The notes under the pieces were generated by a model, which saw only the letters and a list, made by a program, of their open reading frames with translations, made no database searches and was not told where the DNA came from. Positions 19,405-61,530 of a DNA stretch of 64,000 nucleotides are shown here, in pieces. Source of the DNA: Aradus depressus (Eukaryota > Arthropoda > Insecta > Hemiptera > Aradidae); assembly GCA_963662175.1 (NCBI GenBank), contig OY759218.1, positions 7,680,001-7,744,000 of the forward strand. The letters run 5' to 3'. Numbering within the stretch: the first letter of the stretch is position 1; every line of letters begins with the position of its first letter. Position numbers and translations under genes: made by a program.

Positions 19405-19450
19405 ACTAGACCTGACGATGGTGTGAAGCCGAAACCGGTAGTTGTATTTT
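19405..19450 (+). ncRNA. Hammerhead-like motif A
   Basis: CTGACGA (19412-19418), U plus a 3-bp stem GGT/GCC with a GTGAA loop, GAAA (19431-19434), and the palindrome ACCGGT (19434-19439) followed by A. This is the order of a hammerhead core (CUGANGA, helix II, GAAA, helix III, UH). The very short palindromic helix III is typical of the dimer-acting ribozymes known from Penelope-like elements. Cleavage is inferred, not shown. Confidence 0.6.
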
Positions 19451-19505
19451 TATAAATATCTTTAGTGGAATAGACAACATTTCAAAAAATAAGCTTGTTT
19501 TATTT

Positions 19506-19509
<4 letters not shown>

Positions 19510-19564
<55 letters not shown>
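19510..19564. repeat. (TA)n microsatellite
   Basis: About 27 uninterrupted TA units directly downstream of the hammerhead-bearing remnant; it ends in ATAATACAT. Confidence 0.95.
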
Positions 19565-19568
<4 letters not shown>

Positions 19569-19702
19569 CATAAAGTATCTTCATGATTACATTACTTTTA
19601 TCACATAACCTGGTTTAGCAGAAATGAAAAATATTATTATAAACATCCTCGAATTTCCAGTCCGGGGATTTCGGAAGTGAAAATGTTGGGATTTTGAAAT
19701 CT

Positions 19703-19950
19703 CAAATACAGATGTGATTTTCACTAATTATCTAGCTGCAAAATGTTTTTTATTTCTTTTTTTGTTATGGCTACTACTATTTGACAATTTCACCCCCTTC
19801 AAAGGTAATATTTTGTTTTATATCATTTGTAATTACCTCCACCTCCCTCCGCCCTAGACATGGACATGGCTAGTTTGCATGTCCAGCTTTCGGAAGTAAA
19901 GTCCCGGATTTAACACATTGTCCCGGATCCGATGCAAAGGACTCAGGCAT
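19703..19950. repeat. Dispersed repeat shared with 9855-10070
   Basis: Same landmark order as the copy at 9855 (ATACAGATGTGATTTTCACT, then GTCCAGCTTTCGG, then CACATTGTCCC). Non-coding. Confidence 0.7.
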
Positions 19951-20049
19951 TCTTATGACCTATTTTACTATGATATGATTTAACGGAAATAGATATTATT
20001 ATTAATAATTGCTCAGAAGGTAGTTTAAACATTAAAAAAAAAAAAAAAA

Positions 20050-20125
20050 AAGAGCCTTCTCAAGGCGTAGTGGCTTAGACAGGTGCAATTTGACGTATAG
20101 TTCCCGGATCGATTCCAGCAGATGC
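20050..20125 (+). repeat. Possible tRNA-derived SINE head
   Basis: GGCTTAGACAGG resembles a box A, and about 35 bases on GGATCGATTCC differs by one base from box B (GGTTCRANNCC). An A run of about 18 precedes it at 20033-20050. A weak call from two short motifs; no second copy was found in the window. Confidence 0.25.
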
Positions 20126-20649
20126 TGGTTATTCTTTTAAAATTAAAGTTGAATTTTAGGAAAAAGTACTGTTGCAAAAGAGTCGATTTTCTGTCCGAAT
20201 TGGGAGTATATAAGGAGCTTTTTTTCCCACAAACACTAACTTCGTCATTCCTTACAAACTTAATGAAAACCAACCCCTGAAGAGTATAATTCCAGAAATA
20301 TAGGACAATATTTACTTGAATTTTCTATTCAGGGATGGAACAGAGGATGGATTCCAACAGAGCATGAAGGGAAATGAATAAAGAAAGTAAATTGTATTTG
20401 GTATTTAAGTAAGTATGTGAGGGATATAGGGCAGTTTGAGGAGCCTCAAGGAAGATATTGTATTTCAATATGGCTTTGAAGGTCTCAGTTCAGAAATGGA
20501 CCATTCTTCGCCCATTTGAGGGGACCATATCAGTGTTTAGTAGAAAGTGTAAACTTTTTTGGTGCACTAATGAACCAAAGCCAAATTCCTTTCATGAGCG
20601 GTGTTTCAGTGTTGATTAGTTCATTGCAGAACTGAATAGAATTACTATA

Positions 20650-20890
20650 AAAATCAACTTATGCACTCACCCGGTTACGAAAACTACCGGGTTATGTATT
20701 CAAAGAAATGAAAGACGTCTTTCCACTGTTTTGTTTCCGACCAGAACCGGCTTTCAAAGCAACTGCGACATCATCAGTGGCACATCTCCCGTATAGTAGA
20801 CACCATACTAATCGGGTAAAGTGCCATTGATGGTGATGCAGTTGCGCTGAAAGCCTTTTCTGGAGATAAATAAAACAGTGAGAAGACAAC
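20650..20890 (-). ncRNA. Hammerhead-like motif K in a foldback
   Basis: On the - strand CTGATGA (20777 to 20771), a 15-base spacer and GAAA (20755 to 20752) are followed by GCCGGTT. An inverted partner on the + strand around 20820-20862 (ATTGATGG, then CTGAAAGCC) is degraded. Core letters match, but the spacer pairs poorly, so this is a decayed member of the set. Confidence 0.4.
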
Positions 20891-21164
20891 CATATGTAAT
20901 GTTGAATTTTCACCGGAATTTCATTTATCCGACCCCTTGAATCCAAATATTAAAAAAACATTTCTTGTTTTTGTGTGTGTGTGAGCGCGATAACTCCCAA
21001 TAGAATGAATGTACCGACACGAAATTATATATGTATATCCGGAACTCCATTAGGACGACATTTACCTATTTCCCATAAAGTTGGCCGAAAGGAAGGGGGG
21101 ATAAGAGAAGGGGGCTTAAGCAGAATCAATGCTGGCTAAAAATCAATAATTGACTTACAATTAG

Positions 21165-22254
21165 ATAGGGATTTCTGAATCCTCATATTAAATGTTGTGT
21201 TTATACATGGATTACATTGACAGTTATCAGGGTTTTTGAGTTAACTCATTGTACGCATCATCACAACATTTAATATGAGGATTCAGAAATCCCTATCTCT
21301 TCAGAGACTTCTGAATCCTCATATTAAATGTTGTGTTTATACATGGATTACATTGACAGTTATCAGGGTTTTTGTGTTAACTCATTGCACGCATCATCAC
21401 AACATTTAATATGAGGATTCAGAAATCCCTATCTCTTCAGGGATTTCTGAATCCTCATATTAAATGTTGTGTTTATACATGGATTACATTGACAGTTATC
21501 AGGGTTTTTGAGTTAACTCATTGTACGCATCATCACAACATTTAATATGAGGATTCAGAAATCCCTATCTCTTCAGAGACTTCTGAATCCTCATATTAAA
21601 TGTTGTGTTTATACATGGATTACATTGACAGTTATCAGGGTTTTTGTGTTAACTCATTGCACGCATCATCACAACATTTAATATGAGGATTCAGAAATCC
21701 CTATCTCTTCAGGGATTTCTGAATCCTCATATTAAATGTTGTGTTGATACATGCGTTACATTGACAGTTATCAGGGTTTTTGTGTTAACTCATTGCACGC
21801 ATCATCACAACATTTAATATGAGGATTCAGAAATCCCTATCTCTTCAGGGACTTCTGAATCCTCATATTAAATGTTGTGTTTATACATGGATTACATTGA
21901 CAGTTATCAGGGTTTTTGAGTTAACTCATTGTACGCATCATCACAACATTTAATATGAGGATTCAGAAATCCCTATCTCTTCAGGGATTTCTGAATCCTC
22001 ATATTAAATGTTGTGTTTATACATGCATTACATTGACAGTTATTAGGGTTTTTGAGTTAACTCATTGCACGCATCATCACAACATTTAATATGAGGATTC
22101 AGAAATCCCTATCTCTTCAGGGATTTCTGAATCCTCATATTAAATGTTGTGTTGATACATGCATTACATTGACAGTTATTAGGGTTTTTGAGTTAACTCA
22201 TTGCACGCATCATCACAACATTTAATATGAGGATTCAGAAATCCCTATCTCAGT
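21165..22254. repeat. Eight 136-bp palindromic tandem units
   Basis: The word CTGAATCC recurs at 21175, 21311, 21447, 21583, 21719, 21855, 21991 and 22127: exactly 136 bp each time, with no indel. Each unit begins TTCTGAATCCTCATATTAAA and ends with its reverse complement (TTTAATATGAGGATTCAGAA), giving arms of about 30 bp around a core of about 75 bp. The units differ by a few substitutions (GGATT/GGACT/AGACT at the junctions; ATGGATTAC/ATGCATTAC/ATGCGTTAC inside). The unit is derived from family D. Non-coding. Confidence 0.95.
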
Positions 22255-22339
22255 CAATTATTGTTTTTTAGTCAAAATCGTTCATTAATTCGAGCTGGGG
22301 AAGTACTTTACTTATATTTTTTAGCGACCTCTATAAGTA

Positions 22340-22710
22340 TGCGGCTTTTGCGCTCACCCGGTTCAAGAGACCAAACTGCGACTACATTCCCATCAAACAT
22401 GCTCTCCGCAACACAATATTTGTTAGACCGGTCGCGCGATAGCGATAATCATGGTCACCGGTACACAATATTTGTGTTTCCGCTCTCGCGATAATGCCTC
22501 AACACTTTTCCAAATTTCATTCTGCAGAAAAAATCCTTCTTGTAAAAATGTCGTTAACCAGAATGATCGGACGACAGAAAGAGGCGAAAACGGGGAACAT
22601 AATTTTATTTTAACTCTCTTGACTTCGTCATTTTTGGACGACAATAGATTACGTAACGTGATATCTTTCATTTGAGCCATATAATGTTTGTCTACGCTCA
22701 TTAGAATCTG
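22340..22710. other. Less AT-rich segment with ORFs on both strands, unassigned
   Basis: Open frames of 77 codons (+, 22261-22494) and 92 codons (-, 22423-22701) overlap. Two imperfect repeats (AACACAATATTTGTTAGACCGG and TACACAATATTTGTGTTTCC) lie 65 bp apart. It could hold an exon of the - strand secreted-protein gene at 23829-23907, but I see no diagnostic motif and do not call one. Confidence 0.25.
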
Positions 22711-23828: not shown

Positions 23829-23907
23829 CTGTTTGTTTCGGGATGGATATTGCAGCGGTGAAGAAGACAACCAATGACACCAGAGCCAATATTCGAAATG
23901 AACACAT
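23829..23907 (-). CDS. First exon of a small secreted-protein gene (partial)
   Basis: ATG at 23907-23905 opens 26 codons that form a textbook signal peptide: a short basic start (MCSFR), a hydrophobic core (ILALVSLVVFFTAA), then ISIPKQT. The frame meets a donor, G|GTAAATG, at 23829/23828, leaving a phase-1 intron, common after signal-peptide exons of secreted peptides, inhibitors and antimicrobial proteins. A TATAAA on the same strand lies about 225 bases upstream of the ATG. Downstream exons would lie at lower coordinates; I could not identify them with confidence, so the mature product is unknown. The alternative is a chance frame, but the signal peptide plus donor combination argues for a real exon. 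Confidence 0.5.
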
Positions 23908-24132
23908 TTTGATGGGGAGAATCAAAAAAAAATTACATGGCAAATTGGCGATAAGTGGGATATAAGTACGTAACTTGTGGAATGCGGGCTTGATGGGAGC
24001 TGATAGAGCTTACCCGAAGCGTGGCTGAAGGCACACTGAGCTTGCCGCTTCAAGTTAGCCCAAAGTGCGGAGTGGAAGCGCAAGCGCCCCAACCCCCGTA
24101 CCCCCCCTGTAAACAATACCAAATAGTGCTTC

Positions 24133-24138: not shown

Positions 24139-24206
24139 GCCAATGTCAGGGGATCACAGGTCAGGGGTCTCACTCCCACAGCTCCTTCAGGGTATCCCCC
24201 TTTCAG

Positions 24207-26030: not shown

Positions 26031-26690
26031 CAAGCATTTCTTTGCAGATCACTCAGAACGCAGAAGTGTACGCTGCTAAGTGTGTAATTATAGACAATGG
26101 AATTTGAGAGTCTATTAAAAGAGTTTATAGCACATTTGTTTAAATGTAATATTATCCTATTTCTAATTATTGAGAGAAACTAACCAGACTTAAGACAATC
26201 ATTATAGTCAGGGCCGGCTCTAGGAGGGAGCAGGGTAGGTAGCTGTCGAGGGCGGCAAATTATGAAGGCCGTGAAAACGGCAGATTATTTGTACATTTGC
26301 AAAAATGTAATTATTTTATTTTTTTAAATAATTATATTTCAAAAAACGTTACAATTACAACTGACATAATGCTTCCGGTTGACTCTAATCACCCTTGGGC
26401 ACAAAACATCTCAGGTTTCAGATGGCGTTGATGGCAGGTTATTCAGAACACCTCTCAGTAACAATAATTTCTGTTGTGTTCTTATACAATGTATGTAGAC
26501 ACTATGCGGTATGTAAGAAACAAACTCAAGTAACTCAGTAATTGTATATGTATTTCATAACCTAACAAAAATAATGTAATTGTATCATATGATTTATATC
26601 TGTATCACACTATAGTCTCCCCCTCGAAATTATGTTCCTATGGTCATACACTTGGTCCCCGTGTCCTTTCTTCTGCCCCTTCGCCGGCAG
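26030..26690. other. No gene recognised
   Basis: AT-rich. It includes GTCAGGGCCGGCTCTAGGAG, a text of dispersed-repeat type, at 26208-26227. Nothing coding. Confidence 0.4.
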
Positions 26691-26865
26691 TAGCTTAAAT
26701 TTTTATTCATCTAGGGTAGAGGGTCTTTACATACAACCTGACATCATACCGGCTCGGGACCATCGCATTACGCCCCACCCGAAGAACGGCGTGCTTAAGT
26801 TTATTTTACATCCCGAATAAAATAAACTAAGGGCCTCGGCCGGGTTTCGAACCCACTAACTATAT
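26690..26865 (-). mobile_element. tRNA-derived SINE fragment
   Basis: Matches the central and head parts of the SINE at 40041-40387 (ATTCATCTAGGGTAGAGG, ACGGCGTGCTTAAGTTTATT, TAAGGGCCTCGGCCGGG). On the - strand it carries a perfect box B, GGTTCGAAACC. The box A end and the 3' tail are missing. Confidence 0.7.
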
Positions 26866-27204: not shown

Positions 27205-27300
27205 TTCACTACCTGAGGATGGTAGTTAATTGCCGAAACTAGTTGTGGTATGAATAAAATATATTCTTGTACTGATAACTCTGTATAACTTATTTATCTA
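27205..27300 (+). ncRNA. Hammerhead-like motif B
   Basis: CTGAGGA (27213-27219), then T and a 5-bp stem GGTAG/TTGCC closing a TTAA loop, GAAA (27235-27238), and the palindrome ACTAGT (27238-27243) followed by T. All core positions are intact. The spacing equals motif A. The following ATGAATAAAATATATTCTTG resembles the tail of Penelope-type terminal repeats. Confidence 0.6.
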
Positions 27301-34744: not shown

Positions 34745-37700
34745 GTATTTCTTAAATGTAACATCATTAAAAAAGGTTTTCTTTTTTTCTATTCAAAAAA
34801 TGTATAAATAATTATAATTGTCTTGGTCATTTAAAAAGTTTTAAGGTTTCCTCCACATTCTGTTTTACACTTAAATCGGATTTTACTTTTATCATAATTT
34901 TCTGTTACTATTGTCTTTCTAGGTGATATACTGAAATGAATTTAATCTCTACGAGATTGGAAGCATATTCACGCGAATGGGCTTTTTTACGCGCTGTCTT
35001 AGCAATACACCTTTTATTACAGAGTTGGATTCATTTGTTTTTGTGAAAATTACATAACATATCAATAAATTTAAAAGCTAGTGTATTGTACCTATACTTT
35101 CTGCGTTTAAAGAGGTAGTAATTGAATGTTCATAACTATACAGAAACACGTTTTGTTTTAAGGATACAAAAACAATAACAGGGAAGGTATTAAATATCAG
35201 AAAATTGTTTATATTAAATGAATTGACTAATACAATGAATAGTTTATTAATTATATGTAAAGATTAAAATACTCCCAAAAATAATATATCAATATGAAAC
35301 GAATCTATTAGTTTTAGACGTCAACCTTGTTTTTTAAGAAGGTTACGTTTCAATTATCCGCTCTTCAGTTGGATTATACCTCATGTGCATTAAAATGGTT
35401 CCTTTTTGCGTAGATAAGTATATTAAAATTGTTAATTTTCATTTTAGAGTAGCAAGTTGTCCCGGCGTTGCCCAGGAATAACTTTGTTTGTTATAAATTA
35501 GCTACAACTTTTCTATCAAAAGAAAAGTTTTAACTATGTATATAATTAGGACTTGTTTGGTCAAGCTTTTTAGATTTCTTTGGATACAGTTTGGTATTGA
35601 AAATGCCATTTCTTCTCTCAAATTTGAACTAATTTTGCTCTGCTCTTGTTCAATGTAAGACCTGATAGACTTTCATCCTGACGGGGAAATAGACTCTCTT
35701 ATCCGGTACAAAATCAGCTCCATCTTTGATGGAAAAATCCGTGGATAACCTACATTTTGGCATTTGGTGAACAAACGTCGCTTCATTAAAAAACATTCTT
35801 GAAGTGACAGCATTTCTTCTGGCCTTTCAGAACTTATGTTTTAAATAGTATTTTGGATGCAATTGAAAAGCGTCAATAATACCTACATAAACGCTTCGAT
35901 GAGCCTGAGTCTTACAGATCAATGATATATATTTATAATAATTGACCAAATATAATCTATAATAATAGCGACAATTATTTATCAGATTGATCAACTTTGT
36001 TTTTTTGCATTTCACCGATAGATACCTTAAATATCTAAATCCGTTTATCGTATCTTGAATTATAAAACCAGAAAGTTTACAGACATGTCGAATAAGAGAG
36101 AATTACAATTTTGTGCTCTAGCCAGCCACTTCTCTGTCAAATCCCAACTTGCCAAAAAGCAAATTAATACTTTTTAATAATAACTATTTGCGTAATATAA
36201 CTTTTAATTAATTTTCAGGATGTAGAACTGCTAGTTTAAGCTTGGAGGCCCGTTCTATAAATACTTGGAGTACCAAGAGGCATTGCATCGTATCAAGAAT
36301 TGAGGATTTAGCCACACAAAATATAATGAGAATTAAAGAAAATGCAGGCGGTTTACTAATAGTTTTACCCAAAAATATTGGATCTTTAAGTTCAGAAATG
36401 AAAGAAGTATATATTATTTATTTATATTTATTATTTTATTTGTGTTGTTATAATTGCATGTATATATATATAGGTATATATTTTGTTTTCAGTTATTTAT
36501 TGATTTGGAAATGCAGTTGTTGGAGGATGAGACATCAATTCCTATTTATTTTGTAGTTTGGTCGCCTCATTTAGAAAATATACTTTCTGATATTGAAATT
36601 AGTAGTTTTTCCAATGAGAAGGAAGGATCTGCTTTAGAAGGTAATTTTTTCCAATAATTATCTTATTTTATTTATCTCCTTAATAATGTATTTACAAAAT
36701 TATCAAATTACTTGAAAAAATAAACAAAATATATATTATATAGCGTTCTAGTAGGGAAGGATTGGCCAACGATATAATAAGGAGGAGGAGGGTCGATAAA
36801 AACAAACTTGGAATTTCTGCCAAGATTTCGGCACTGAGCGTGCTTTCTTCAGGGCTTTATTCTGCCAGGATGCTATTCATTCACCCGTAAAAGAAAGCGG
36901 GTCGTCAGTAGATTACGTTACTGTATTTCTACATGTTTGACAATTGGGTGGGCTCGTTATGTTTGAAGGTGGGTGGTTGTTTATATTATGGATCTGTTTA
37001 TAATGACGTCCGCATCGAGATGCAGGTCTCTAAATCTGGTTACCCCGTCTCCCTATTCTTTTACAGATGAATGAATAGCATCGGGGCACAATGAAGCCCT
37101 GAAGAAGGCATACTCAGTGCTGAAAGCTTGGCAGAAATCCACAAATTTGTTTTTATTGACCATAAACCTGATCTCTCCTTCCTATTTAATATATAGCATG
37201 TTCAGATTTTTATGATGTATTATTATTTTAATGTGTTTGTCATTATAATTAGTATGCTATTCATTTTATTGGCAGCCATGCTTCAGTCCTTTTCGGCCAA
37301 TGGGTACCGAATTGTTGTCAACGCGAACAGGCCAACATCGAAGAGTAATGCCAATATAATCTCAATACAGGTGACTATTATTACTAACTTCACAAGTTGC
37401 AAAATTGAAATGTAGTCTGACCTCTCAAAGATTTTATTATTATATGCTAGCCGGTTTTCGATGTTGTCCTCATCAGGCAGTCTACAAAATTGTATGTACT
37501 TTTTACTAAATTAAGAATTTTTTTGACTGTTGATGTGCTCACCTCGAAAGCCGGCTAGCAAATAATAATAAATTCTGATTATTCTAAGGTTTGGAATCGG
37601 CATGAGCTATTGCTCGGTTTATCTGGCATTGATTAGTCTACATATATGCGGGGAGTGAAATATGAGGAATGAAAAAATATATATATTTATCTAATTATAG

Positions 37701-40700
37701 TTAGCTCCATTCACCCTCTAAATGAGTCGCAAAAAAAAAAAAAAAAATGAAAAATTGCATTTCTCTTTTCATTAACAAATTACATAACAAAAATGAATGT
37801 TTACAAAGAAAACTAAAATGAGAGCTTGTTCGGCCAAGCTTTTTAGATTCCTTTGGATACAGTTTGGTATTGAAGGTGCCGTTTTCTTACAAATATCACA
37901 ACCCAATCCTTTACGAATTTGCGAATCTCGATTACGAGTATTGCATTCTTGATTGTTAAAAATCATACATTCGTGATTGTTAAAAATCATACATTCATTG
38001 CGGGTCTGAATGTGTTGACATGAAATTTTACATATAGTTTCAGAAGATCCTGTTATCAATCATTGATTTTCAGGCAAATCAGTCAAAAATAAAGTAAATT
38101 TGGGAGTATAATCTTAAGTTCGTTGATTGCAATTAATTCGAGATGGGAAAGTACTTCCTTTGGATTCACTCATGGCCTTTTAGCTTGTAACTTATAACCA
38201 TAATTCAAAATATGAATTTCGAGGCCTTTAAGACACTACTATTGATCTAATAACGGTGCGTTTCTCAACGAATAGAAGACCTGTCTCAATATTAAATATA
38301 TGTATAGATGTTTCTCTTTCTGATTGCTTTCTTGTACTTCTATTTTTCCAGGGAAAAATCTCGGGCTTTGGTTTAGAAGACAAACTCCCAACGATAGCAA
38401 TTGTCAGTCATTTTGACACATACGGAGGTGCACCCGTAAGATTTTTTTACTACTAATAATGTTAAGTATTATAAAGAAAAGAAGTATAGGGAATGTTAGG
38501 TGATCTGTCAGAAATTCTATTTCATTCTAGAATAAATGTACCGACACAAAATTGTATATGTTTAATTGACGATTTTCAGTAACATTGGCCGTCGGGAAAG
38601 GGGAAACAGAGGAGGGTGCTCAACTCAAAACCCGTAATAACTCTCGATGTAACGAATACATCAACATGAAATATAGTGATTCATATTCCTTAAGACATCT
38701 ATTGAATTTCGAACAAATCGCTATATTGGTTTCAGAGGAAGAGCGAGAACTTAGTTGATCAATTTGCACTGGGATGTTCATTGCCGTCGATGTTTTTTTT
38801 TTTTTTTTTCAGACATCTTTACAAATGACAATGTAAGATTGACTTTTAGAAAATGTTCCTATCCTTTCGGGAATATATACATATATATATAGTGGGCTGG
38901 TGTTTTACAACTAGGGACCTAAGCATCCAGTGCTCTTATCTCTTCCCACGAAGCGCTAGGCTTCCTCCACCAAGTTCTTCGTAGAGTGCTCAGTCTCCCA
39001 GTTTCCTTAATGAACCTAAGAATGCTCTCGTGGTCCAATCTCTAAAATCCTCTTCTGCGATTACATCTTCATCAAAGATGTGGAATCTCGTTCGCGCGTA
39101 TCCCGAGCTGATGCCCGGGAAGTGTGCCGCCGTCTCGTCTTCCTCCCCACATCTATCGCAGGTGGAACTGTCCTTGACTCCTACAGTGTGCAGGTGTCTA
39201 TTGAACGGACCATGTCCTGTGAGAACTCCAGTTACTTGCCGAAACTCGTTCCTTTTGAGGTTCAGGATCACATCCTTCAATACCTTGGACTCCCCTCCCA
39301 GGAACATCTTCGACTGCCTGCATGTGGTCTTTTCTCTCCATGTACGCTCCAAAAGATCCTTAGTCCACTCTTTAATCCGGATTAGGTATGCCTCCCGAGA
39401 TTTTCCTAGTACTGGCTCTGGCTCCATAAAGGGCTTACTTAAACTTTCCTTGGCTAGTCGGTCCGCCTCTTCGTTTCCCTGGATCCCCGAGTGTCCGGAG
39501 ACCCATTAGAGTCCAACCATCTTGCAGTACCCCCCGGGAAAAGGGAGAGAACAATAAAGGAAAACAATTGCGAGGTAAACATGGACTACCTCGGATGGCT
39601 TAAAGGTACTCAGGATGTAAATCATCCAAAATTAGCAATTATAGACGAATTATGGGAAGTACTCCCATCATCAGTATCTATAATTCATCTGTTCTTTAGG
39701 TTAACTATTCCTTCTGTCAATCAGAATCTTCATTTTATAGAACATATTTATTGAGACAACTTCTATGTGGAAACACCAAGTTAAAACGTTTCAATATATA
39801 TACTGGGTGGACTGGTGTGTACACCTTGCGACCTTAAATATCATATAACACATTTAGCAAAAAGCCGCGATGTGATGAGTGCAGGTTGCTTGTCGCTCCA
39901 TACTCATAGTCCACCACCTCCCAGCCGGTTACTCGACCCCTTCCGGTATGCACTGCACTGGAGTATAGAGGTCGACTCAATAAATATGTTCTATAAAAGG
40001 AAAATTCTGATTGACAGGTGAAATGTTAACATAAAGAACAGGGTTAGGTTAGGTTTTATGACTCATGCCCAGGCTTTAACTACGAGGTCATATCGCCTAC
40101 TACCAGAGCGCTCTTTCGTCACTCTGGTGGACATGAGCCCGACTCTACTGTGGGAGTCCTAAATTTTGCCTACCCTAAATTTTCATTCATCTAGGGTAGG
40201 GGTCTTTAACGAGTACCTGACATCGTACAGGCTCGGGACCATCGCTTAACGTCCCATCCGAAGGACGGCGTGCTTAAGTTTATTTTACCTCCCAGATAAA
40301 ATAAACTAAGGGCCTCGGTCGGGTTATGAACCCACGACCTTGAGCTCAGAAGTCAAGCACGCATACCACTGAGCTACCGGCGCCCTCCATAAAAAACATA
40401 CAACTTATTGATACTGATAATGGGAGTACTTCCCATAATTCGTCTATAATTGCTAATTTTTGGAAAAGGCAAAAAATAAATTGAGAGAAGTAATGCTGTG
40501 ATGAGTTTATTATGTAATAATAATAATGAAATTTCATAGAAAAGTCATGGACTGAGATATGTGGTTTCGCCATCTAAAACCATAAGTATATTTGATGGAT
40601 TAAATATTTTAGTATTTAATGGAACGTTTCGAGGCTAAGCTAATCATCAGCCCAATTTCAATTATGCTATTTTAGTTAAATAATCAAACTGAATAAGGAA

Positions 40701-43700
40701 AAGAGACCTAAGAAATTTTTTTTCTTATTTAGGTTGATTATTTAACTAAAATGTCAGCATTGAGTATTTCTTTTGAGATCTCTATTAAGAAATATGATGC
40801 TATATAATAAATGTCATGAAAACAGCCAAGAAGGTCGGTCTAGAGTATTTCAGAAACATTCCATTAATTCTTATTTTGTTAATTGTTTTTCAGGATTTGT
40901 CTTTTGGTGCGGATAGCAACGGTTCTGGTGTGATCATGTTATTAGAATTAGCTAGAATTTTTTCCCATCTTTACTCAAACTCCAGAACTCATGCTCAAGT
41001 TAACTTACTATTTCTTCTATCTGGCGGTGGGAAATTTAATTATCAAGGAAGTAAAAAGTGGCTTGAAGACCAGTTAGAACATCTGGAAGGTTCGCTATTA
41101 CAGGTATTGCATATTAACACAGTTTTATATATTTATTTATTTTTATAGAGATAGAAGGGGGGAGAGAAAGACATCTTAGATAAAGCGGATGAATGCCGGC
41201 ATTCGGGCTTATTACATTACTTTAATATTTTAGTATTTAGGGGAACGTTTCGAGCCCAAGCTCATCATCAGCCCATTCTGTAGGAGCAAGAAATTAAGTA
41301 ACTAGTCATAAGGATGTGGTTATCACCAACCTTAATAGTTAAAATAAATTTACCTCAATGATGTCTTTCTTAGTTAAAAAATCAAAAAGGAAACAGGTAC
41401 GTGCATTTTTTTTTTTTTTTTTTTTTAATTTCTTTATTTGCAATCTATATACATTTTATATAATTAGCAAATATGTTAACTGTATGCCTGAGTGTCTATG
41501 CCACATGTTGGGAGAGGTCAGCCAGCGCTGATACTCCCTAGATACTAGTACAATGTTTAGATTTCCCTTAGAAGATCTCGAGGCCACCTCCTATTCAGAC
41601 GGCGTGGAGGATTGTCAGGATGGGATTGAGAGGATAGGACTTGTGCAAATAGGTTAGGATGGGATGAAAGTTTATTGTGGAAATTTAAGAATCGGGATTG
41701 GACGAGTTCTTGGACGGTTGGAATGTTTAGGTTAGGTTAGGTTTTATGACTCATGTCCGGGCTTTAACTACGAGGTCATATCGCCTACTACCAGAGCGCT
41801 CTTTCGTCACTCTGGTGGACATGAGCCCGACTCTACTGCGGGAGTCCTAAATTTTGCCTACCCTAAATTTTTATTCATCTAGGGTAGGGTCTTTAACGAG
41901 TACCTGACATCGTACAGGCTCGGGATGTTTAGGTCTTCATGGAATAATTTATTGGTGACGTAGAAGGGAGCATTTACGATTCGACGAAGGACTTTGGACT
42001 GGAAAGCTTGGATGCTGTTTATATTGGATTGTTTGGCTGTACCCCATAGTTCGAGGCCGTATGTCCATATTGGGCGTATTATAGTCTTGTAAATGATCAG
42101 TTTGTTGGCAGTAGAAAGTTTTCATTTTGGTCCAAGTAGTCTACGTAGTAGTCCGTAAGGTCGATTCAACTCTTGTCGTTTAAGTCGTATGTGTGGGTTC
42201 CACGTCAGTCGGCTGTCTAAGTAGAACCCGAGGTAACGCACCTGGTTAGAGGAAGGAATTAGAACGTTGTTGATGGTGACGGGAGGGCACGTTTGATGGC
42301 GAAGTGTGAATGTAACCTGTACACATTTCTCTTCATTTCATCCGCCAGAGGTTACATCATTTCTCGATCTCATCGAAATGTTCCTGGAGAAGGAGAGAGG
42401 CTACGTGCATTTAAGAACGAAGTAAACTTCTGAATAATAAATACTTCTCAATAATAAATACTTCTGAATAATAAATACATCTGAATAATGTGTCATTGAA
42501 AATGCAGCTATTTAAAAGACCTGTAAAACAGCTTGAAATGTAATACCAAAAAAATATATAATATCTTTTTCTGATGGTAACCTAGCTACGGACTTTATGA
42601 TAGAGCAGAGCATAAATGAGGTTATCAAAACCTAATTCATGTTTATACTGAAGATCATTATTATTATTAGATAGATAATTATTACTGTATTAACCAATCT
42701 GTGATTTGGTCTTGGTCGTCTATTGATTATCTTATGTAAGACGAGGAAACTTTTACATCAAATAATCAATATTCATTTATTTTTTTATTACATCAGTTTT
42801 TCTTAGATTAATATTATTTCAAACCGTCTGGACATCCTCCCCTTTCTTATATTTTTAATATAATATTTTATTTTCATCTTGTTTACTTTTATAATATTTC
42901 TCTTTTACTTTTATGATTATTCTCCACTTAATTATGTTGTTTGTGTAATTATTTATCTATATTTATTTTTTATTTATTTATTTATATTTATTATTGTACG
43001 GTTGTAGTACGGTGCTCTTTTAATTAGTTTTCCTTTTCTTACTTTTGACTTTCTATTTACTTATTCTTAGGGGACCTCGGCCCCAGAGTAAAGCACAGGT
43101 TGGTTAGTATAAAATTTAACGTTTAATGTAGTAAGTTATTGCTGTGACAGTAATTGCATCAAAGCAATGACTGTATCAATGTTTGAACTACATAGATATT
43201 GAGGATAGAAACGTCGATGTGAAAAAAAGTTTAAAATAAATCCTGAGAAAAATAGCTGCAACTAAATAATACAACATTAATAGAAATCTCATTTCACATC
43301 ACAACCCGATTTTAATTTATGTTATTTATTTAGTAAAAAATCTAGAAAGCATTCTAAATATTACTTTCAGGATGCGATGTTTGTACTCTGCCTAGACACA
43401 GTGAGCTCCGACAAGAATTTATATCTTCACGTATCAAAACCTCCTAAAGAAGGATCTCCACTAGCTAAATTTTATGACGTAAGTATTTTTTTATTTATTT
43501 ATATTGACATAACATTATCTATGCTATAAAAACAGCGAAATATGCACATATATATGCAAATATATTTGGCAAGATATGCAATTAAAAACTAAAAATATGA
43601 GGAACGGCTGTAAAGCAAAAAAAAATACCTTTATAATAACTACTTTATAATAACTCAGAAATTGAAATAGTCCCACAATACACATATTTAGGAATCCCCT

Positions 43701-49700: not shown

Positions 49701-52700
49701 CACACTCGGCCACGGGCTACACCCCCAATTACTTGATTTACGGGAGAGAGCTGCGGCGGCCGTCCCCCTGTCAGCCGGATCCCGTGTGGGACCACGACGA
49801 CCAGGAGGATAAGCCACCATTTGCAAAAGACTTGCGGGACCGACTGGAGTATGCTTACGCCCAAGCGATGGAGCAAGCCCGCCTGAGCCACGAGGCTAAT
49901 GCCCAGCAATATGACCGCAAGGCAAAACGGCCGCAATACGACGTGGGGCAGTGGGTATATTTGCATTGCCCCGTGCCTCCCACGGGCACGTGCAAAAAGT
50001 TTTATCGGCCATGGAGAGGCCCATACCGTATTACCGAGCGGTTGTCCGACCTGACCTGGAGTATTGAGGTGCAAGCTGGTGTGTGTAAGGTCGTCCACGC
50101 GAACCGGCTGAAACCTCATAAGGGGGCCATGACGGACGAGGGGTGCTGGACTTGGGTTCCTGAGGAGAGGGCCGCGGAGGCGAAGCGCCGGGCTCCCGAC
50201 GCGGGCGAGCAAGTACCATGGGACTTCCTGGTGCCACCCCAGGACGAGGAGGATGGCGCCGAGGGACTCCGATGGGGGGAGGATGCGCCCCCGCCTGAGG
50301 ACGAGCTGGCGGATCCACCGAGCCCGGGTTCTCCAGAACCCGCGGACGACGTCGTTCGAGATCCGGAATACCGTCCGGGGACCCCCGGGCGCACTCACTC
50401 CCCGGATGCGCCCCCATGTCGTTCCCCTTATCTCCTGCGGAGGAGGAGGCCTGTGCCGCCCGATGACCCCTAACCGCGTTGTTTTTTCTGTTGCGGGCGG
50501 TCGAGGCTGGGTGGTGAGTTCGTCGTCGATTCTGCGATCCCTGAGTCTCGCCGCTAGTCGGGTGGGGATCGAGTTAGACTGTGTCGTGGGGGGGATGGAG
50601 GCCGCGACGATGGGTGGGGTGAGTAGGGCCCTGTTGTATCCCCGGGAGTTGAGCGTGCTCCTGTCCCAAGTCTCTCTGTTGCTTCCCAGTAAATTACAGG
50701 TGTTCGCAGGTGCAGCCGCCGAGGTGATGTGCGCCAGTTACGCAGCTATTGCGGTGCACGCTCTGGCAGTGGGGCGGGCTGTCCGCGTCTCGCTGGGCAT
50801 GCCACTCTCCTTCTCGGAGCACCGATATGAACTGGACCGGGTGCTCTCGTTACCGGTGATCGATGACCTCACGCAACTTCATACCCGGGTGACGGATCCA
50901 TTCCCCTACTACCTGGTCGGCGAGGACCGTGAATGGTGTGCCACCCCTCAGGAAAGCGATCTGCACGACTGCCGAGGCCGGGATGTTCTAGTTTGTCCGA
51001 GCGTATTATCCTTTTCCTCGCGACGCTCTCCTTCTTGTATGTCGGAAATCTGCTTTCACCGAGACCGCCCACTCCTGACGCTATGCAGTCGCGTCGAGCT
51101 GTCTGGACGGATCCTGGCGTTGTGGGCTTGGGATGAAGAGAACGCCCAGTGGCTGTGTGGTGTGCCTCGGCCGGAGAAGTTGCGAGCCCGCTGCAGACGG
51201 GGCCAGACCGGCGTCGTGCTGGAGCGCAGCAGCAGCGGACTTGGGGTGCTGGCCGCCGCGGACGGTTGTGCTTGGGTGTCGGACCTGGTTGGATTCATCC
51301 TGGTGGTGTGGTGGCGCACCCTGCGGAGGCCTCTGGTGGAGGGCCAGCGGGTATCCCCGCCGCCGGAACTGCAGCGCCCACCGTCGGCGCGGGCCGTTTT
51401 CTACTGACCTCGACGCCCGCGTCGGGAGACTGGGCCTGCGGACAACCCCCTTCGCGAGTGCTATGCTGCGACGGACGCTTAGGACTGGGGGTGTTTGGTG
51501 AATGTGTGTAATGTTACAAGTGTAATTGGTACATTAGTATGTAATTTGTAGTTACTTGTAGTTTAAGTTTATGTAATTTGTAGTTATTTGTAGTTTAAGT
51601 TTGTACTGGGATTTAGTAATAAGTGTAATTTGTGGTTTCCCCTGGCTTCCCTCTTAGGCACGTTGGGTGTGGAGTTGGAAAGGGAAGACACTCGTTGGAG
51701 TGCTTTCCCTTTTTTACAGGGAGGAGTAATTGTAGGACTGGTGGCGGTGTTTATTGAGTCACTTCCGGAGGGGGAGGCTGGGAATGTGCGGGAAAAGCAC
51801 TGATTGGGCGACCCCCACTCTTGACCAAGTGTGGGCACGAGAGGGGAGGAAGGCAGTCTTTACTGTGGGAGAGGGAGAGTTGTTACATTTATTTAGAACA
51901 ATAAATAGTGCTGTGTTAATTTGGCCACCCCCACTCCTCCCGGTTACAATATTTAATGTCAACGCCTAATGAAGAAATAACCAATCAAATTTGAGCGATA
52001 TCGGCCGAGGGGAAGGGGGGTTCAGGGGGAGAGGCTCAACCCAATACCTTAATAACTGCCGATGTAATGAATGTATCGTCATGAATTTTCATATTTAACG
52101 TAAACCCCAGTGAGGACATAACCTGTCAAATTTCAGCGATATCGGCTGAAAGGAAGAAGAGGTTCAGGGAAGGGGGCCCAACTCAAAAACCGTATTAACT
52201 GCCGATGTAATAAATTTATCGTCACAAAATTCAGTATGAGGATTTAGGAGCCTCTATGTATGCCAACTGTTGAGTATTAGCGCTAACGGTAGATTGGTTT
52301 TGGAGGTAGAGCGAAAAGTTAATTGATTAATTCGTTCTGGGAAACTACATTGCCCGTGATTCACCGACTAATTTTTACTTTCTTATACTAAAATTACTCG
52401 AGAAGTATAGCGAAAATTTATACTAGAAAACACGAACTCAGTACTTACACTTGTAATTAGATTCTAGACATTTGTTAATAGCATTTATTCAAACATACAT
52501 CTGTCTTTGACTGTAATCAAATAACATTTTTCATTAAAAAATAATTTGTTCGATGTATACCATTCATTTTTAAATAGTTTTCAAAAACATATGATTAAAA
52601 AAATAGATATCGGTGTAAGTTCTAGTTTGTTGTGGTTAATAAATATATTTTAGAACTAAAATAAAAGTTAACTTGTATACACGATAAATATTTATTCTTT

Positions 52701-55700: not shown

Positions 55701-58700
55701 TAAAAACACCTCCTCGCTGGTCTTCTTACCCAGCTTTGCAGTTGTCGAGCTGTTAAACCTCGTTGCCTAGTGGTCTGGACTTTTAAATATCGGTCTTGCT
55801 GAGGGGTAGTTTTTCGAACTCGGCCTCCTCCATGAGTGTATTGAGCAGTACCTGCTCTCAGGTATCGTGACCATGATCTTCCGATAACTGTGTGAGCACA
55901 ACCAAGCCTACGGCCAACATCACGCTAAGAATGGCCTAACTCTAAAAGAGCCAAAGCCCTCCCTAGTTCTTCAACAGTAAGTCATCGTACCGGCATTTAA
56001 AAAAAAAATGTCTAGTGCGCTGGCTAAATGAGTACTGATGGTGAAAGACGAACTTGATTTCTTTAAAGGATTAACTCCGGTAAAGATGCTCCCAATTGTG
56101 TAATCAAAATGAATGTTTTTTGTTTATTTTTATTTTTCTTTAATCCCCACAGAGATCACTTGAAAAGAATGTGGAGAAGTTGTAAAAATAGTTTATTTTA
56201 ACTGAAAAAAATTTCAAATAATCCAAGTAAAAGAAAATGAGTGATATCTGAATTTTTGAAAGTGGTCCACTTCAATTTGTGAGCAGTTTATTTGTAAGCC
56301 ATAGGTCCAGAGAGGTCGGAGAATATAGGTATATCAATTCAGTTTTTGTCGAGTAGATAATTTAGAACCCCTATTCAAAATACTATAGTCCAAGTCGCCG
56401 GTCTAGTGTGAGTCGTGTCGTCCGAGTGTGAGGGTTCCAAGTCAGCCTTCTATCGAGGGTTAATCCTAAATATTTTACGGAAGAAGTATGAGGTAATGGC
56501 TGGTTTTCTATACAATATTTAAAACAATAAAAACAATAAGAAAAACATGTTTTTTTAAAGTATTGTCTATTTCACAAATTATATATAATATATGGGAGTA
56601 CTTTCGGTATTGTTACCATCTTCACCCACGACTTAACAAATACTAAATGGAAGTTCAACAAAAAGTAAAGAAAAAACGTGTTTTAAAAAAATATTGTCTA
56701 TTTCACAACATATAAATTATATGGGTGTACTTTCGGTATTGCTACCATCTTCAGCCACGACTAGACAAACACTAAATGGAAGTTCAGCCAGTTTATAATC
56801 CAAACGGTACACTTCCTTCAGTCCCCACCGGGTTTTTCCTATCCCTCCTGTACAGTTACGTCTTAAAATATGGAAAACATTAAAAATAAAATTGAAATCT
56901 TATAATAAAAGGAATTTTTTTAAAATAGTATGTGCTGATTAAAATACAAACACATTTATATGCATATATGAAATAAATCGAAGATGACAATAATAAGTAT
57001 ATAAATAAATATAAAAATACATAAAATAAAGATACATAGTTTTTGATGAAGTTGGTACGTATACACAGACTGGAGGATTATATTATTGGCGATAAAAGAA
57101 AAGGAGTGAATATTTGAGATTGGTCTGATCGTTCATACAATTTCCTTCTTATAGTGCTCTGTTTATTTCCCGTTGTTCCAGTGAGTTAAGTAATGTATCT
57201 TTGTCACAAAAATGTAGGTATTGTATGCCTGTATTAAGATCGAAATGGTGTTTGTTTTCGTTGATATGTTGTGCGAAAGTTGGTTTTACTGAATTGTATC
57301 TTGTGTCAGTGTTTAAGCCTATTTCTTATACGTGTTATTTTACCCTATTTTTAAATTGTCTCCCAGTTTGACTTACTTAAACAAAATTACAACAACTACA
57401 TTTTAGCTGGTAAACCCCACTTTTTTCTTCTGGTTTTGTTTTTGTCTTTAGTGTTGTTGATGTGTTTGTATAGTGGTAGCAATACCGAGAGTACTCCCAT
57501 ATTATATATATTTGTGAAATAGACAATATTTTTTAAAAAACATACGTTTTTTCTTTACTTTTTATTAAGTGTTTCACAATATCTCTGCAAGAAAGTATCA
57601 GGAAGTTCAACAAGAGTACATTCCGAAACCCCAGCCCCAGGGGTTTTTCCCTCTTCCTTTCTCCAGTTCAGTAAAGTCTTAAAAACATGGTAAACATTAA
57701 AAATCAAATTTCGTCTCAAATTGAAATCTTAATAATAAAAGAAAAATTTTAATTAATATCAGTGCTGATTAAAATACAAATATATAATATATTTCATTTA
57801 GCTGCTCTCTTCAGAAAATGACATTTTCCATGTAGGCGCTCGATTCTTTATGTATTTATTATTATTATTTTTTCAGATATTTAGAAGATGTAAAATTTTC
57901 ATACCAAGCTGCAGATAAAAGAGATCCTGAATTTGTCTTTTATGATTCAACAAATGCCATTATCAACATTTATAAGTACGTACATCTGTTTACAGTTTTC
58001 TTTTCCAATTTTTTAAGGTTCCGTATAGGATAAAACATTAAAAAGGAATCCTTATAGAGAGCCAATCCAGGAGCTAGAAAGTTGTTGTTTTTTTTTTTCT
58101 GAAAAATGACACTACACGTATCGCACACTACCAGTATCCAGGAATCTGGTCCTAGCTCGATGGATCACACTAGCACTCACATTGAAGCGATTTGCGACTG
58201 CGCGCATGGATTCACCGATGTTTAGCATCCCCATCGCTTGATTAAGGGAATCGTAACTTAAACGGTTCATTATGAACAGGTTCACGTGTAAGATCAACTC
58301 AGAAACTGTTAATCCACTGATGAAAACATTACTGTTCAAAAGATAAGAAATTCCATGATACAATATGACTTAATCCGGCAAATAACAACAGGGTAAAAGT
58401 ACACGCACTTACATTCTTTCACACTGCTAAGATACAAAGGTAAAATATTTCCGATTTTCTTTGTTTTCTCACTCACAAGAGGCCTCGTGTTACAACATAT
58501 GAACGCTCACATTGGTTCAAGCTTCGATAAAATGACAAAAAACGAGGTATACTATCGAATTTTTATGTGTTCCACTTCGAGTGTTGAGCAGTGTACAATA
58601 CTCAACATCAATATTTTGACTACTACATAACTTCTCTACACTTTGTGAAACTGGGGAAGTAAAAATGAAAATATATTTAAATTTAAACTAATATTATTTA

Positions 58701-59586: not shown

Positions 59587-59660
59587 TTAGTCATAATGTA
59601 GTTACAATCGAGTCGTTTTTCTATATGAAGTAGTATTTAAATTAATTTGTTATTTCATGT

Positions 59661-59666
59661 AATAAA
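59661..59666 (+). other. Polyadenylation signal candidate of NCLN
   Basis: AATAAA 75 bases after the NCLN stop codon. Further AT-rich signals lie downstream, so the true end is unresolved. Confidence 0.4.
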
Positions 59667-60510
59667 TTTGATGAATTACCATTTTGTAAATAAGGAGAGG
59701 ATAATATTAATTATTAGACTTAAATTAATTTTATTTTACTTTAAGAAAAAAATATAAAAACATTTTTTTTCTCTGGATCGAGGGTGCCCAAGCCTTTACA
59801 TTAATTTTGAATTTCTTTGGTGTGCTACTATATTTTTACGTACGTTTGAATATACAGCAATAATAATACTTGAAAATACGTGTCTGAGTGGTTATTGTTA
59901 CTATCGTGAGAGGCTTTAGAAAAAAAAATGAAATTATTCGAATTACCACGACTGAAAGGATTGTCTATAGCTTGAAAAGTGTGTAAATAAATAATATTCA
60001 AAAACATTAGATATTCTCAAGGTTTTTTGTATTCATAAAACATTGTATATATTATTTATTTGTCATTCCCATAAAGTATTTTTATTTTTTATGTTAATAT
60101 TTTCCATTTTGAGTGTTTTTATGTATTCTGTCTATGAAATGCTTGGCGGAAGCTTAAATATTGATTCCTATAAATAATTGTAAAATGATTACTTTCAGAT
60201 GACTAATTTTGTGCGAAAAAATAAATACATAAACAAAACATATGAATTGCTTTTTATTTACTCCAAATTTGTCATGCGCAAGGTACAACTGAAGCTAAAA
60301 TAGAAAATTATGAAGTACGTAATTTCATAAACTGGACCCTCACTTTTCTAAAAGCGATGGATCCTCGATGACATATGAAACGTTTTTGTTCTTTCAATAC
60401 TCATAGAGTAGTAACCTTTGTTTTTTTTAATCACTTAGTTTTTGTGGTATTGATGGTACCTGTTAAGGTGGTTTTTCCTATAAAATGGTACAATATATTT
60501 TCTCTGGATT
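59667..60510. other. Region after NCLN, no gene
   Basis: AT-rich, with possible NCLN 3' UTR at the start. No repeat or ORF of note. Confidence 0.5.
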
Positions 60511-60514
60511 AAAA

Positions 60515-60790
60515 CCAATATTTTTTTTTTTTTTACGAACAGATATTTACAACTGTATAAAAATATATACAACAAGCAAATATGCTAATAGATAAGGGCA
60601 ATGTCAAGAGGGGAGAGATCACCCAGTCGTGACACTCCCCAGTCATTGATTTCCTCTCATTTTTAACTAATCACTGTCACTGCTGCTGATAAGGAAGTAT
60701 CTAAGCCTTAGGCCGTCGTTGGGGAAGTATGGCAGAATGGAGGGCACGGACTAGAGGATTAGATAGAGGGAACTAAGAAGCGAAAATAAT
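60515..60790 (-). mobile_element. Jockey-like LINE 3' UTR fragment
   Basis: Starts with a T run (60518-60534) and resembles the 3' end of the Jockey copy at 41409 in layout and words (GCAAATATG, GGGAGAG.TCA, CACTCCC). Confidence 0.45.
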
Positions 60791-61169
60791 TTTTTATATT
60801 TGGATTTAGCGACTTCGGTGACAAAAGGTACGTGTGACAAGAAAAAAACATAACAAACTAGCCCTACGAACTGGCATTTGTCTTGGGCTTTCATATAGTT
60901 TTGTGACGCCTAGACAACGCCGGGTACTTATTCAAGGTAAAATATCTATTCATTAAAGTATACGTTTGAATTGGTAGTGCATTGAAGAGTTCCCTAGGTG
61001 AAATTGGTGTGTAATTTGGAAGATATGAAACTCTTTACCGATCTATCAGAAATAGACCTCGCTATTCAAACTCACAACACTAATACTAAATTGTTAGATA
61101 TGAATGTTAAAAACAATTTCCCCACTAAAATACTGTTCCTATTTGATCCGAAACAACGTTATTCCCAAC

Positions 61170-61450
61170 TTTAGCCCTCACATTTCCTCCACTCGCGTGG
61201 AAAATGAAATCTATGTTGACAGCTTTTAGCACTGCTTGGCTGTCAGTATTAGGATTCGCCCTCCCCTGATGTTCCGTCTCTTAATGAGCCAGGCACACCC
61301 GAGAATGGCATATACTTCAGCTTGGAACACAGCGTGATGTACACCTAGGGATATACTGATTGTTCTGCCATGTATTCCAGCTCCAACTCCTCTCTCGGTT
61401 GAGTCGTCTGTGAACCGGACCAGCTTTTCCCCTATCTTGAGTCTTAAGGC
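61170..61450 (-). mobile_element. LINE RNase H fragment
   Basis: On the - strand: VRFTDDSTERGVGAGIHG, ISISLGVHHAVFQAEVYAIL, CAWLIKRRNIRGGRILILT: the N-terminal half of a LINE RNase H domain (D, then E in FQAEVYAI). It could be the missing upstream part of the family seen at 38885-39545. Confidence 0.7.
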
Positions 61451-61489
61451 CTAGACAGTAGTCATTGCTTCGTATTGCTCCTTACTTAT

Positions 61490-61530
61490 ATTACAGAAGA
61501 TGAGCTGACGGCTCGAAACGTTCCCATAAA
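61490..61530 (+). ncRNA. Hammerhead-like motif L (decayed)
   Basis: CAGAAGA (61494-61500; T of CTGA lost), helix II GAGC/GCTC perfect, GAAA (61515-61518), palindrome AACGTT. Same subtype as motif H, on the + strand. Confidence 0.4.

What the first reader, a model, noticed from the sequence alone, without database searches (positions are those of the whole stretch)
19405..61530. A dozen hammerhead-ribozyme-like cores scattered on both strands
Seen: the order CTGANGA, short stem, GAAA, short palindrome recurs at 19412 (+), 20777 (-), 27213 (+), 36852 (-), 37099 (+), 37476 (-), 37527 (+), 40650 (-), 41271 (-), 56625 (-), 56754 (-) and 61494 (+). Stems differ in sequence but keep pairing in A, B, H, I, J and L (for example GAGC/GCTC and GGTA/TACC), and palindromes differ too (ACCGGT, ACTAGT, AACGTT, AGTACT, AAGCTT). 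Covariation of this kind means structure, not mere copying. Known: Penelope-like elements carry hammerheads with very short helix III acting as dimers. Inference: at least three or four distinct Penelope-like lineages left ribozyme-bearing terminal repeats here.
Basis: partly seen in the sequence, partly recalled or inferred. Interest (0 to 1): 0.8.

Follow-up and report, generated by a model that had tools for sequence, protein, structure and literature searches.

The report
Hammerhead ribozymes of Penelope-like retrotransposons
The scattered motifs are hammerhead-type ribozyme sequences left behind by several families of Penelope-like jumping genes, an arrangement already known in animals, but here they occur in very large numbers and with one extra letter in the core.

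Summary
All 12 cores are at the stated places. Nine have an exact CTGANGA...GAAA; three have one core change (37527, 56625, 61494). A strict three-helix descriptor finds 4 of the 12, against 1 hit in 60 randomised windows. Genome-wide, two family patterns give 18,323 and 10,379 exact matches against reversed controls of 2 and 0.

Site B matches an element with an 824-aa Penelope-like ORF between two such motifs, 2,970 nt apart. F/G match a second lineage, A a third. J/K lie downstream of a GIY-YIG fragment in the window itself. C has a weak RT remnant. D/E and H/I/L are repeat families with no ORF linked.

The motif lies near the 3' end of the copies, so 5'-truncated copies keep it, often as head-to-head pairs. 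One deviation from the textbook core is near-uniform: one extra nucleotide after A9, usually U, making CUGANGAUG (18,323 with it, 13 without). Self-cleavage is untested. Hammerheads in Penelope-like elements are known, so this is a new member of a known kind.

The parts
19404..19448 (+). Site A, family F1 (PLE-3): GAC-CTGACGA-T-(GGT)gtgaa(GCC)-GAA-(ACC)(GGT)-A-GTT
   Evidence: E 3e-14, but in the model's training set; 90.8% over 131 nt to the tandem PLE-3 copy
20704..20787 (-). Site B, family F4 (PLE-1); core intact, helix II decayed
   Evidence: 81.6% over 87 nt to L025 motif region
20824..20890 (+).
   Evidence: 79% over 67 nt to L025
26360..26443 (+). Possible decayed piece of a Penelope-like RT upstream of site C
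   Evidence: tblastn best E 0.002 (to P0014, over 26360-26422): weak
27205..27252 (+). Site C, family F6: helix I 5 bp, helix II GGTAG/TTGCC, helix III ACT/AGT
   Evidence: E 3e-13, but in the model's training set; no second copy of this family found in the letters held
36791..36895 (-). Site D, family F7 (extra A, not T)
   Evidence: 85.8% over 106 nt to site E
37096..37174 (+). Site E, family F7, head-to-head with D: A-(GGCAT)actca(GTGCT)-GAA-(AG)(CT)-T-GGC
   Evidence: also found at L026
37413..37489 (-). Site F, family F9 (PLE-2)
   Evidence: 82.9% over 82 nt to the motif downstream of the PLE-2 ORF in L030
37527..37559 (+). Site G, family F9, head-to-head with F, decayed core CTGTTGA
   Evidence: 75% over 152 nt to F in inverted orientation; only 19 nt match the F9 piece directly
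40600..40654 (-). Site H, family F5, helix II decayed
   Evidence: 89% over 55 nt to site I
41235..41279 (-). Site I, family F5: T-(GAGC)ttgg(GCTC)-GAA-(AC)(GT)-T-CCC
   Evidence: E 0.003 with a model built without this family
56588..56633 (-). Site J, family F8, second unit of a roughly 129-nt direct repeat with K; core GTGAAGA
   Evidence: E 6e-16, in training set; 83.5% over 133 nt
56717..56762 (-). Site K, family F8; helix III damaged (AGTACA)
   Evidence: E 3e-16, in training set
57086..57430 (-). GIY-YIG endonuclease fragment of a Penelope-like element, upstream of K and J, interrupted by stops
   Evidence: tblastn E 1.6e-27 to PLE-3, 49.6% identity; E 1.7e-17 to P0002; 4 stops in the frame given
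57466..57566 (+).
   Evidence: 57466-57504, E 5e-4; 57474-57566, 88%
61494..61530 (+). Site L, family F5, core CAGAAGA, helix II GAGC/GCTC
   Evidence: E 2e-5
2391..2449 (+). 3' tail remnant of a PLE-3 copy without its ribozyme
   Evidence: 83% over 59 nt
1908..1979 (-). Short fragment like the PLE-3 endonuclease C-end
   Evidence: tblastn E 6e-5 over 24 residues

Best explanation
The motifs are type I hammerhead-like ribozymes of endonuclease-bearing Penelope-like retrotransposons. In the three lineages where a fetched locus spans the junction (PLE-1, PLE-3, PLE-4), the motif lies between one ORF and the next, with the next frame's first Met 114-149 nt after the first core base; for PLE-2 I saw only the ORF's 3' side, which also carries the motif. 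Shown in sequence: the copies read end 3' about 80-150 nt after the first core base, so short 5'-truncated copies keep the ribozyme, and copies are often paired head-to-head. Inferred: reverse transcription starts just downstream of the ribozyme, as published for the Anolis element PAc. Inferred: in tandem transcripts two ribozyme copies pair through their palindromic helix III and cut after H17, giving unit-length RNA of about 2.8-3.1 kb. The dispersed single copies are then by-products of insertion rather than working ribozymes.
For: 824-aa open frame (stop to stop) with RT (PF00078, E 3e-10) between two motifs 2,970 nt apart; 25 relatives, most with RT, several with GIY-YIG (PF01541) and PF26215. 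PLE-1 direct array, period 2,969. In that capped list 48 of 56 matches reach the protein's last residues (820 or beyond) while their starts range from 1 to 563 (counted). PLE-2 motif in 3 of 3 loci fetched from the ORF's 3' side. PLE-3 tandem with motifs 2,836 nt apart. PLE-4 array, period 3,123, with an 841-aa frame. One representative each of nine families: helix I pairs 30 of 36 and helix II 27 of 27, against dealt means of 16.1 and 20.3; helix III is palindromic in 9 of 9. Third helix II pair: 18 of 24 distinct sequences pair, four pair types, dealt mean 8.4. Exact counts 18,323 and 10,379 against controls of 2 and 0. Head-to-head 22, tail-to-tail 4, same strand 1; 16, 0 and 1 in the 150 rows.
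Against: No self-cleavage test. The core has an extra nucleotide in every family read, which a textbook hammerhead lacks. As isolated monomers the hammerhead fold is the lowest-energy fold in only 1 of 9 families. Rfam finds no hammerhead. On the four-family alignment two of five covariation measures do not exceed the shuffles (pairs changed on both sides 4 against 3.3; pair types 8 against 8.8). GIY-YIG is below the Pfam cut-off in PLE-1 (E 0.03) and PLE-4. Families F3, F5 and F7 have no linked ORF. In PAc the ribozyme is not needed for insertion in vitro (PMC11167929, passages), so its role may be minor.
Confidence: 0.9

Rival explanations
1. The motif is kept as DNA- or protein-binding sequence (an RT or endonuclease recognition site, a start codon or a splice site) and no longer as a ribozyme; its pairing is inherited from an active ancestor.
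For: Extra core nucleotide in the families read. In PLE-1 the core AUG is in the frame of the ORF region that follows, and in one copy (L015) that frame stays open for 39 codons. Monomer folds are weak. PAc insertion does not need cleavage (PMC11167929, passages).
Against: Helices I and II and the palindromes changed in step between families while the core stayed fixed, which a plain binding site would not require. In 9 of the 10 copies read the core AUG opens only 2-16 codons. PAc RNA does cleave when protein is added (PMC11167929, passages).
Confidence: 0.2
2. The short units are retrozymes: small non-autonomous elements that spread as ribozyme-cut RNA circles.
For: J and K form a direct repeat of about 129 nt. 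F3 is abundant with no linked ORF: 2,017 first-look candidates, 40 scored.
Against: J/K is the only short direct tandem I saw in the letters held. Arrays seen have 2.8-3.1 kb units with an ORF. Short copies look like 5' truncations of one 3' end and occur head-to-head. F3 conservation runs further upstream in L012, L036 and a second copy in L010.
Confidence: 0.08
3. Chance word matches in a repeat-rich, AT-rich genome.
For: The loose pattern also hits repeats without helix II such as CTGAAGACCAAATAGAAA, and 7 of the 17 window rows are not at listed sites.
Against: Zero hits for 150 scrambled cores and for reversed sequence; genome controls of 2 and 0; ORF linkage.
Confidence: 0.01

Closest known systems
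Minimal type I hammerheads of Penelope-like elements (Cervera and de la Pena 2014, not held; described in passages of PMC6155905 and PMC7761336)
   Same: Type I layout, very short or absent helix III, tandem copies, pseudo-LTR location, thousands of dispersed copies
   Different: One extra nucleotide after A9 in the families read here; I could not check whether the 2014 consensus shows it
PAc, Poseidon of Anolis carolinensis (PMC11167929, passages)
   Same: RT plus GIY-YIG ORF, ribozyme at the pLTR-ORF junction, start codon after G8 at the start of stem II, reverse transcription starting inside the early ORF
   Different: In PAc the AUG opens the ORF; here the core AUG opened 2-16 codons in 9 of 10 copies read and 39 codons in one PLE-1-type copy
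Bdelloid Penelope elements (PMC3846280, passages)
   Same: Direct and head-to-head pLTR arrangement
   Different: Low copy there, often single; many copies here; a term search of that text found no ribozyme or hammerhead
CChMVd plus-strand hammerhead (PMC3705267, passage)
   Same: An unpaired nucleotide (A) after A9
   Different: A viroid; here the nucleotide is mostly U and, with the next G, makes AUG
Metazoan retrozymes (PMC7229834, abstract and passages)
   Same: Type I hammerheads in very large numbers (126,247 motifs reported in axolotl)
   Different: Retrozymes are small tandem units expressed as RNAs of about 170-400 nt; the arrays seen here carry an ORF of over 800 codons

Membership tests
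Penelope-like element (Penelope/Poseidon type) | Reverse transcriptase domain in one ORF | tested here: met
   PF00078 E 3e-10 in PLE-1, above cut-off; E 7e-6 in PLE-4, 26.4 bits against a cut-off of 29.6
Penelope-like element (Penelope/Poseidon type) | C-terminal GIY-YIG endonuclease | tested here: met
   PF01541 E 2e-6 in the PLE-3 C-end, above cut-off; below cut-off in PLE-1 (E 0.03) and PLE-4 (E 2e-4), though PLE-1 aligns with relatives that pass
Penelope-like element (Penelope/Poseidon type) | Direct tandem copies giving pseudo-LTRs | tested here: met
   Periods 2,969 / 2,836 / 3,123
Penelope-like element (Penelope/Poseidon type) | Head-to-head inverted copies and 5' truncation | tested here: met
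   22 of 27 adjacent pairs within 3 kb head-to-head, 4 tail-to-tail, 1 same strand; 16 / 0 / 1 within 5 kb; 48 of 56 PLE-1/PLE-2 matches keep the C-end with starts from 1 to 563., mechanical, in window plus 14 loci: 4 head-to-head and 2 tail-to-tail rows
Penelope-like element (Penelope/Poseidon type) | Spliceosomal intron in the element | not tested
   Only acceptor-like YAG words seen next to the ribozyme; no transcript data
Type I hammerhead ribozyme | Core C3U4G5A6N7G8A9 and G12A13A14 | tested here: met
   Exact in 9 of 12 window sites; demanded by the patterns in the genome counts
Type I hammerhead ribozyme | Helices I and II with covariation, helix I open | tested here: met
   one search mixed (three of five measures above all shuffles)
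Type I hammerhead ribozyme | A15.1-U16.1 and H17 | tested here: met
   9 of 9 family representatives chosen by me (H17 read from sequence); lost in some copies such as site K
Type I hammerhead ribozyme | No extra nucleotide between A9 and helix II | tested here: not met
   All 10 strict hits have one extra; 13 without versus 18,323 with, for one pattern
Type I hammerhead ribozyme | Match to an Rfam hammerhead model | tested here: not met
Type I hammerhead ribozyme | Self-cleavage after H17 | not testable with these tools
   needs a transcription assay
Metazoan retrozyme | Short non-coding tandem repeats of 150-450 nt | tested here: inconclusive
   Only J/K (about 129 nt) seen; the other arrays seen have ORF-bearing units

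The most novel reading that the evidence does not exclude
Penelope-like elements use their own hammerhead class, with one extra core nucleotide kept through many rounds of helix replacement. The extra U fuses the catalytic core to an AUG (CUGANGAUG), and a splice-acceptor-like YAG lies 2-9 nt upstream of the core. Splicing, translation from the core AUG and self-cleavage would then compete at one spot and decide whether a transcript becomes mRNA or template.
Probability: 0.2. Interest if true: 0.7.

Novelty: new member of a known kind. Interest (0 to 1): 0.42.

Why it matters
It gives an animal-type genome with at least four divergent Penelope-like lineages whose ribozymes can be compared directly, with 28,702 exact pattern matches. 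The near-uniform extra nucleotide may explain why standard models miss these motifs and makes a clear test possible: does it tune cleavage, or is it there for the start codon? The 3'-end location explains why hammerhead motifs appear scattered.

Tried and rejected
Rfam scans at gathering and E<10 gave no hammerhead; their miRNA hits in palindromic repeats look like chance from inverted copies. The raw genome count (145,573 versus 31,788 reversed) was not used as a copy number because it includes repeats without helix II. A search for relatives in viral contigs found none (5 pattern matches, none confirmed). The organism was not identified: a gypsy protein search named no close species (best match 54%) and the COX1 search was tried once and not answered. 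The genome count for the A-type families (F3/F7) did not complete. Alignments A1 and A3 were set aside for the covariance model because MAFFT misregisters helix III when its length differs; the model used A4, 8 sequences of four families. No homologous structure in the PDB by sequence. PMC12910113 was searched for hammerhead and ribozyme: 0 occurrences. One literature search (hammerhead ribozyme with copepod) gave nothing relevant.
Full report
WHAT IS IN THE WINDOW. The window is part of a 697.7-Mb, 74-contig genome of unnamed origin (C13:7680001-7744000); its retroelements are of animal type. The 12 listed cores are at the stated coordinates. Nine carry an exact CTGANGA with a following GAAA; 37527, 56625 and 61494 each have one core change. 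The loose pattern gives 17 rows in the window, 10 of them at 9 listed sites, against a mean of 4.1 in shuffles. A strict three-helix descriptor keeps 4 of the 12 (19412, 27213, 37099, 41271) and finds 1 hit in 60 windows randomised by dinucleotide frequency.

SPECIFICITY. On the window plus 14 arbitrary 10-kb stretches (204 kb in all) a similar descriptor with loop-free helix III finds 10 hits, all with exactly one nucleotide between A9 and helix II (7 with T, 3 with A). It finds none with 0, 2, 3 or 4 nucleotides, none with 150 scrambled cores (0 or 1 inserted) and none in reversed sequence. A covariance model was built from 8 sequences of four families. In the window it scores E<0.01 at six places: four that were in its training set, one unlisted relative of the F8 family (57466-57504 +), and 41271, a family left out of the model (E 0.003). 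A further ten rows have E from 0.4 to 5; among these, 37476 (E 3.4) and 40650 (E 4.7) are listed sites and the other eight are not. Among the other loci the model also finds held-out families F3 (L010, E 0.008) and PLE-2 (L030, E 0.009).

COVARIATION. With one representative per family (nine families, strands picked by me), helix I pairs 30 of 36 positions against 16.1 when the strands are dealt among families (P 1e-4), helix II 27 of 27 against 20.3 (P 5.5e-4), and helix III is palindromic in all nine. F2 and F8 are near relatives, so the families are not fully independent. On the four-family alignment 88.9% of cells pair, against at most 57% for slid versions; three of five measures exceed all 500 shuffles, but the number of pairs changed on both sides (4 against 3.3) and of pair types (8 against 8.8) do not; helix I carries the double changes and helix II there has none. 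Among 24 distinct sequences in the 100 rows listed, the third helix II pair forms in 18, as C-G, G-C, T-A and A-T (dealt mean 8.4, maximum 16 in 5,000). The pattern fixed the first two pairs but not this one.

THE HOST ELEMENTS. L025 holds an 824-aa open frame (stop to stop) between two F4 motifs 2,970 nt apart. It has an RT domain (PF00078 E 3e-10) and a GIY-YIG region below the Pfam cut-off by itself (E 0.03). A database search gave 25 relatives that carry combinations of PF00078, PF28514, PF01541 and PF26215, and an alignment of ten shows shared RT and GIY-YIG residues. In the whole genome (56 matches; 55 of 7,275 candidates scored) this PLE-1 forms a direct array with period 2,969; a second lineage, PLE-2, is 41-44% identical. 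Of the 56, 48 reach residue 820 or beyond while starts range from 1 to 563, the mark of 5' truncation with a fixed 3' end. Three loci taken from the 3' side of PLE-2 frames all carry the F9 motif. For PLE-3, a search with its last 120 aa gave 7,465 first-look candidates, of which the 150 scored are 94-100% identical (best matches, so biased high); a tandem pair has F1 motifs 2,836 nt apart. PLE-4 has an 841-aa frame between F11 motifs 3,123 nt apart in an array of seven listed copies; its RT and GIY-YIG matches are just under the Pfam cut-offs. In the window, site A matches PLE-3, B matches PLE-1 and F matches PLE-2. K and J lie downstream of a GIY-YIG fragment at 57430-57086 (-) (E 1.6e-27). 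C has a weak RT remnant upstream (E 0.002). D/E and H/I/L are repeat families without a linked ORF.

WHY THEY ARE SCATTERED. In the PLE-3 tandem, 332 nt separate the ORF's stop from the first core base, and the next ORF's ATG lies 115 nt after it. The corresponding first Met is 149 nt after the core in PLE-4 and 114 nt in PLE-1 (from the frame). Copies of F1, F2 and F4 that I read diverge from one another about 80 to 150 nt after the first core base. Thus the ribozyme sits near the 3' end and survives 5' truncation. Copies are often head-to-head: among 84 listed matches (of 100 shown; 16 rows of one satellite array dropped) there are 22 head-to-head, 4 tail-to-tail and 1 same-strand neighbour pairs within 3 kb; in the 150 rows there are 16, 0 and 1 within 5 kb. 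A mechanical scan of the window and 14 loci gave 4 head-to-head and 2 tail-to-tail rows. In the window, 20777/20824, 36852/37099, 37476/37527 and 56754/57474 are head-to-head. Head-to-head is called the most frequently observed inverted arrangement of Penelope elements in PMC3846280 (passages). The 3'-end placement agrees with PAc of Anolis, where reverse transcription starts inside the early ORF (PMC11167929, passages).

NUMBERS. CTGANGATGGT-N4-10-CCGAAA occurs 18,323 times (reversed control 2) and CTGATGATGA-N6-14-TCGAAA 10,379 times (control 0). The A-type families were not counted because the tool did not complete. The axolotl is reported to hold 126,247 type I motifs (PMC7229834, passages), so the numbers here are large but not a record.

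THE EXTRA NUCLEOTIDE. The first pattern without its T occurs 13 times (control 3). Families F1, F2, F4, F5, F6, F8, F9 and F11 carry T, so the core reads CUGANGAUG; F3 and F7 carry A. A canonical hammerhead goes from A9 straight into helix II (recalled). An unpaired A after A9 is known in the CChMVd plus strand (PMC3705267, passage). In PAc the ORF starts at the start of stem II, after G8 (PMC11167929), which would fit the same A9-U-G. In ten copies read here the core AUG opens 2-16 codons in nine and 39 codons in one PLE-1-type copy (L015); in PLE-1 it is in the frame of the ORF region that follows. I could not check the 2014 consensus, so I do not claim the extra nucleotide as unpublished.

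A FURTHER OBSERVATION. A TAG or CAG lies 2-9 nt upstream of the core in the representative copies of 8 of 9 families (background 0.22 per 12-nt window, P 4e-5) and in F11. The F2 copy used is truncated there. I chose the copies: the window copies of F7 and of F8 at 56625 read AAG instead. It was noticed after the fact and the families are partly related, so it is a lead: the ribozyme may begin at a 3' splice site. Introns in Penelope-like elements are known to me from a title in reference lists (Arkhipova et al. 2003).

MECHANISM AND LIMITS. Most likely the ribozyme acts in tandem transcripts as a dimer, because helix III has no loop and can only form between two copies; a cut after H17 would give unit-length RNA. 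This is inferred. Alone, the hammerhead fold is the minimum-energy fold in 1 of 9 families. In PAc the ribozyme cut only when protein was added and is not needed for insertion in vitro (PMC11167929, passages). The published view is that the role of these minimal ribozymes is unknown (PMC7761336, passages).

VERDICT. What deserves follow-up is the near-uniform one-nucleotide core insertion, its coupling to AUG, and the acceptor-like YAG beside it.

Noticed in passing
window 45189-50473 (+): GC-rich (51-61%) gypsy-type retrotransposon with long open gag- and pol-like frames; best protein match 54% identical.
   Followed up: partly
window 15418-17933 (+) and 41290-42400 (-): Non-LTR retrotransposon-like frames: an endonuclease/RT pair, and Jockey-like RT remnants next to site I (my reading of the translations).
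   Followed up: no
window 21250-22140: Long inverted repeats in a series; they attract sub-threshold plant miRNA family matches in Rfam.
   Followed up: no
window 40113-40387, 26692-26854, 41801-41918 and several sampled loci: A common repeat of about 275 nt, possibly a SINE.
   Followed up: no
G000 C1:135000-690000: Satellite with a unit of about 65-77 kb; the units listed carry an F2 head-to-head ribozyme pair.
   Followed up: no
families F1, F3-F9 and F11, just upstream of the core: Splice-acceptor-like YAG 2-9 nt before the ribozyme core in 8 of 9 representative copies tested.
   Followed up: partly
L030 431-851: Tandem 45-nt repeat shortly after a PLE-2 3' end.
   Followed up: no
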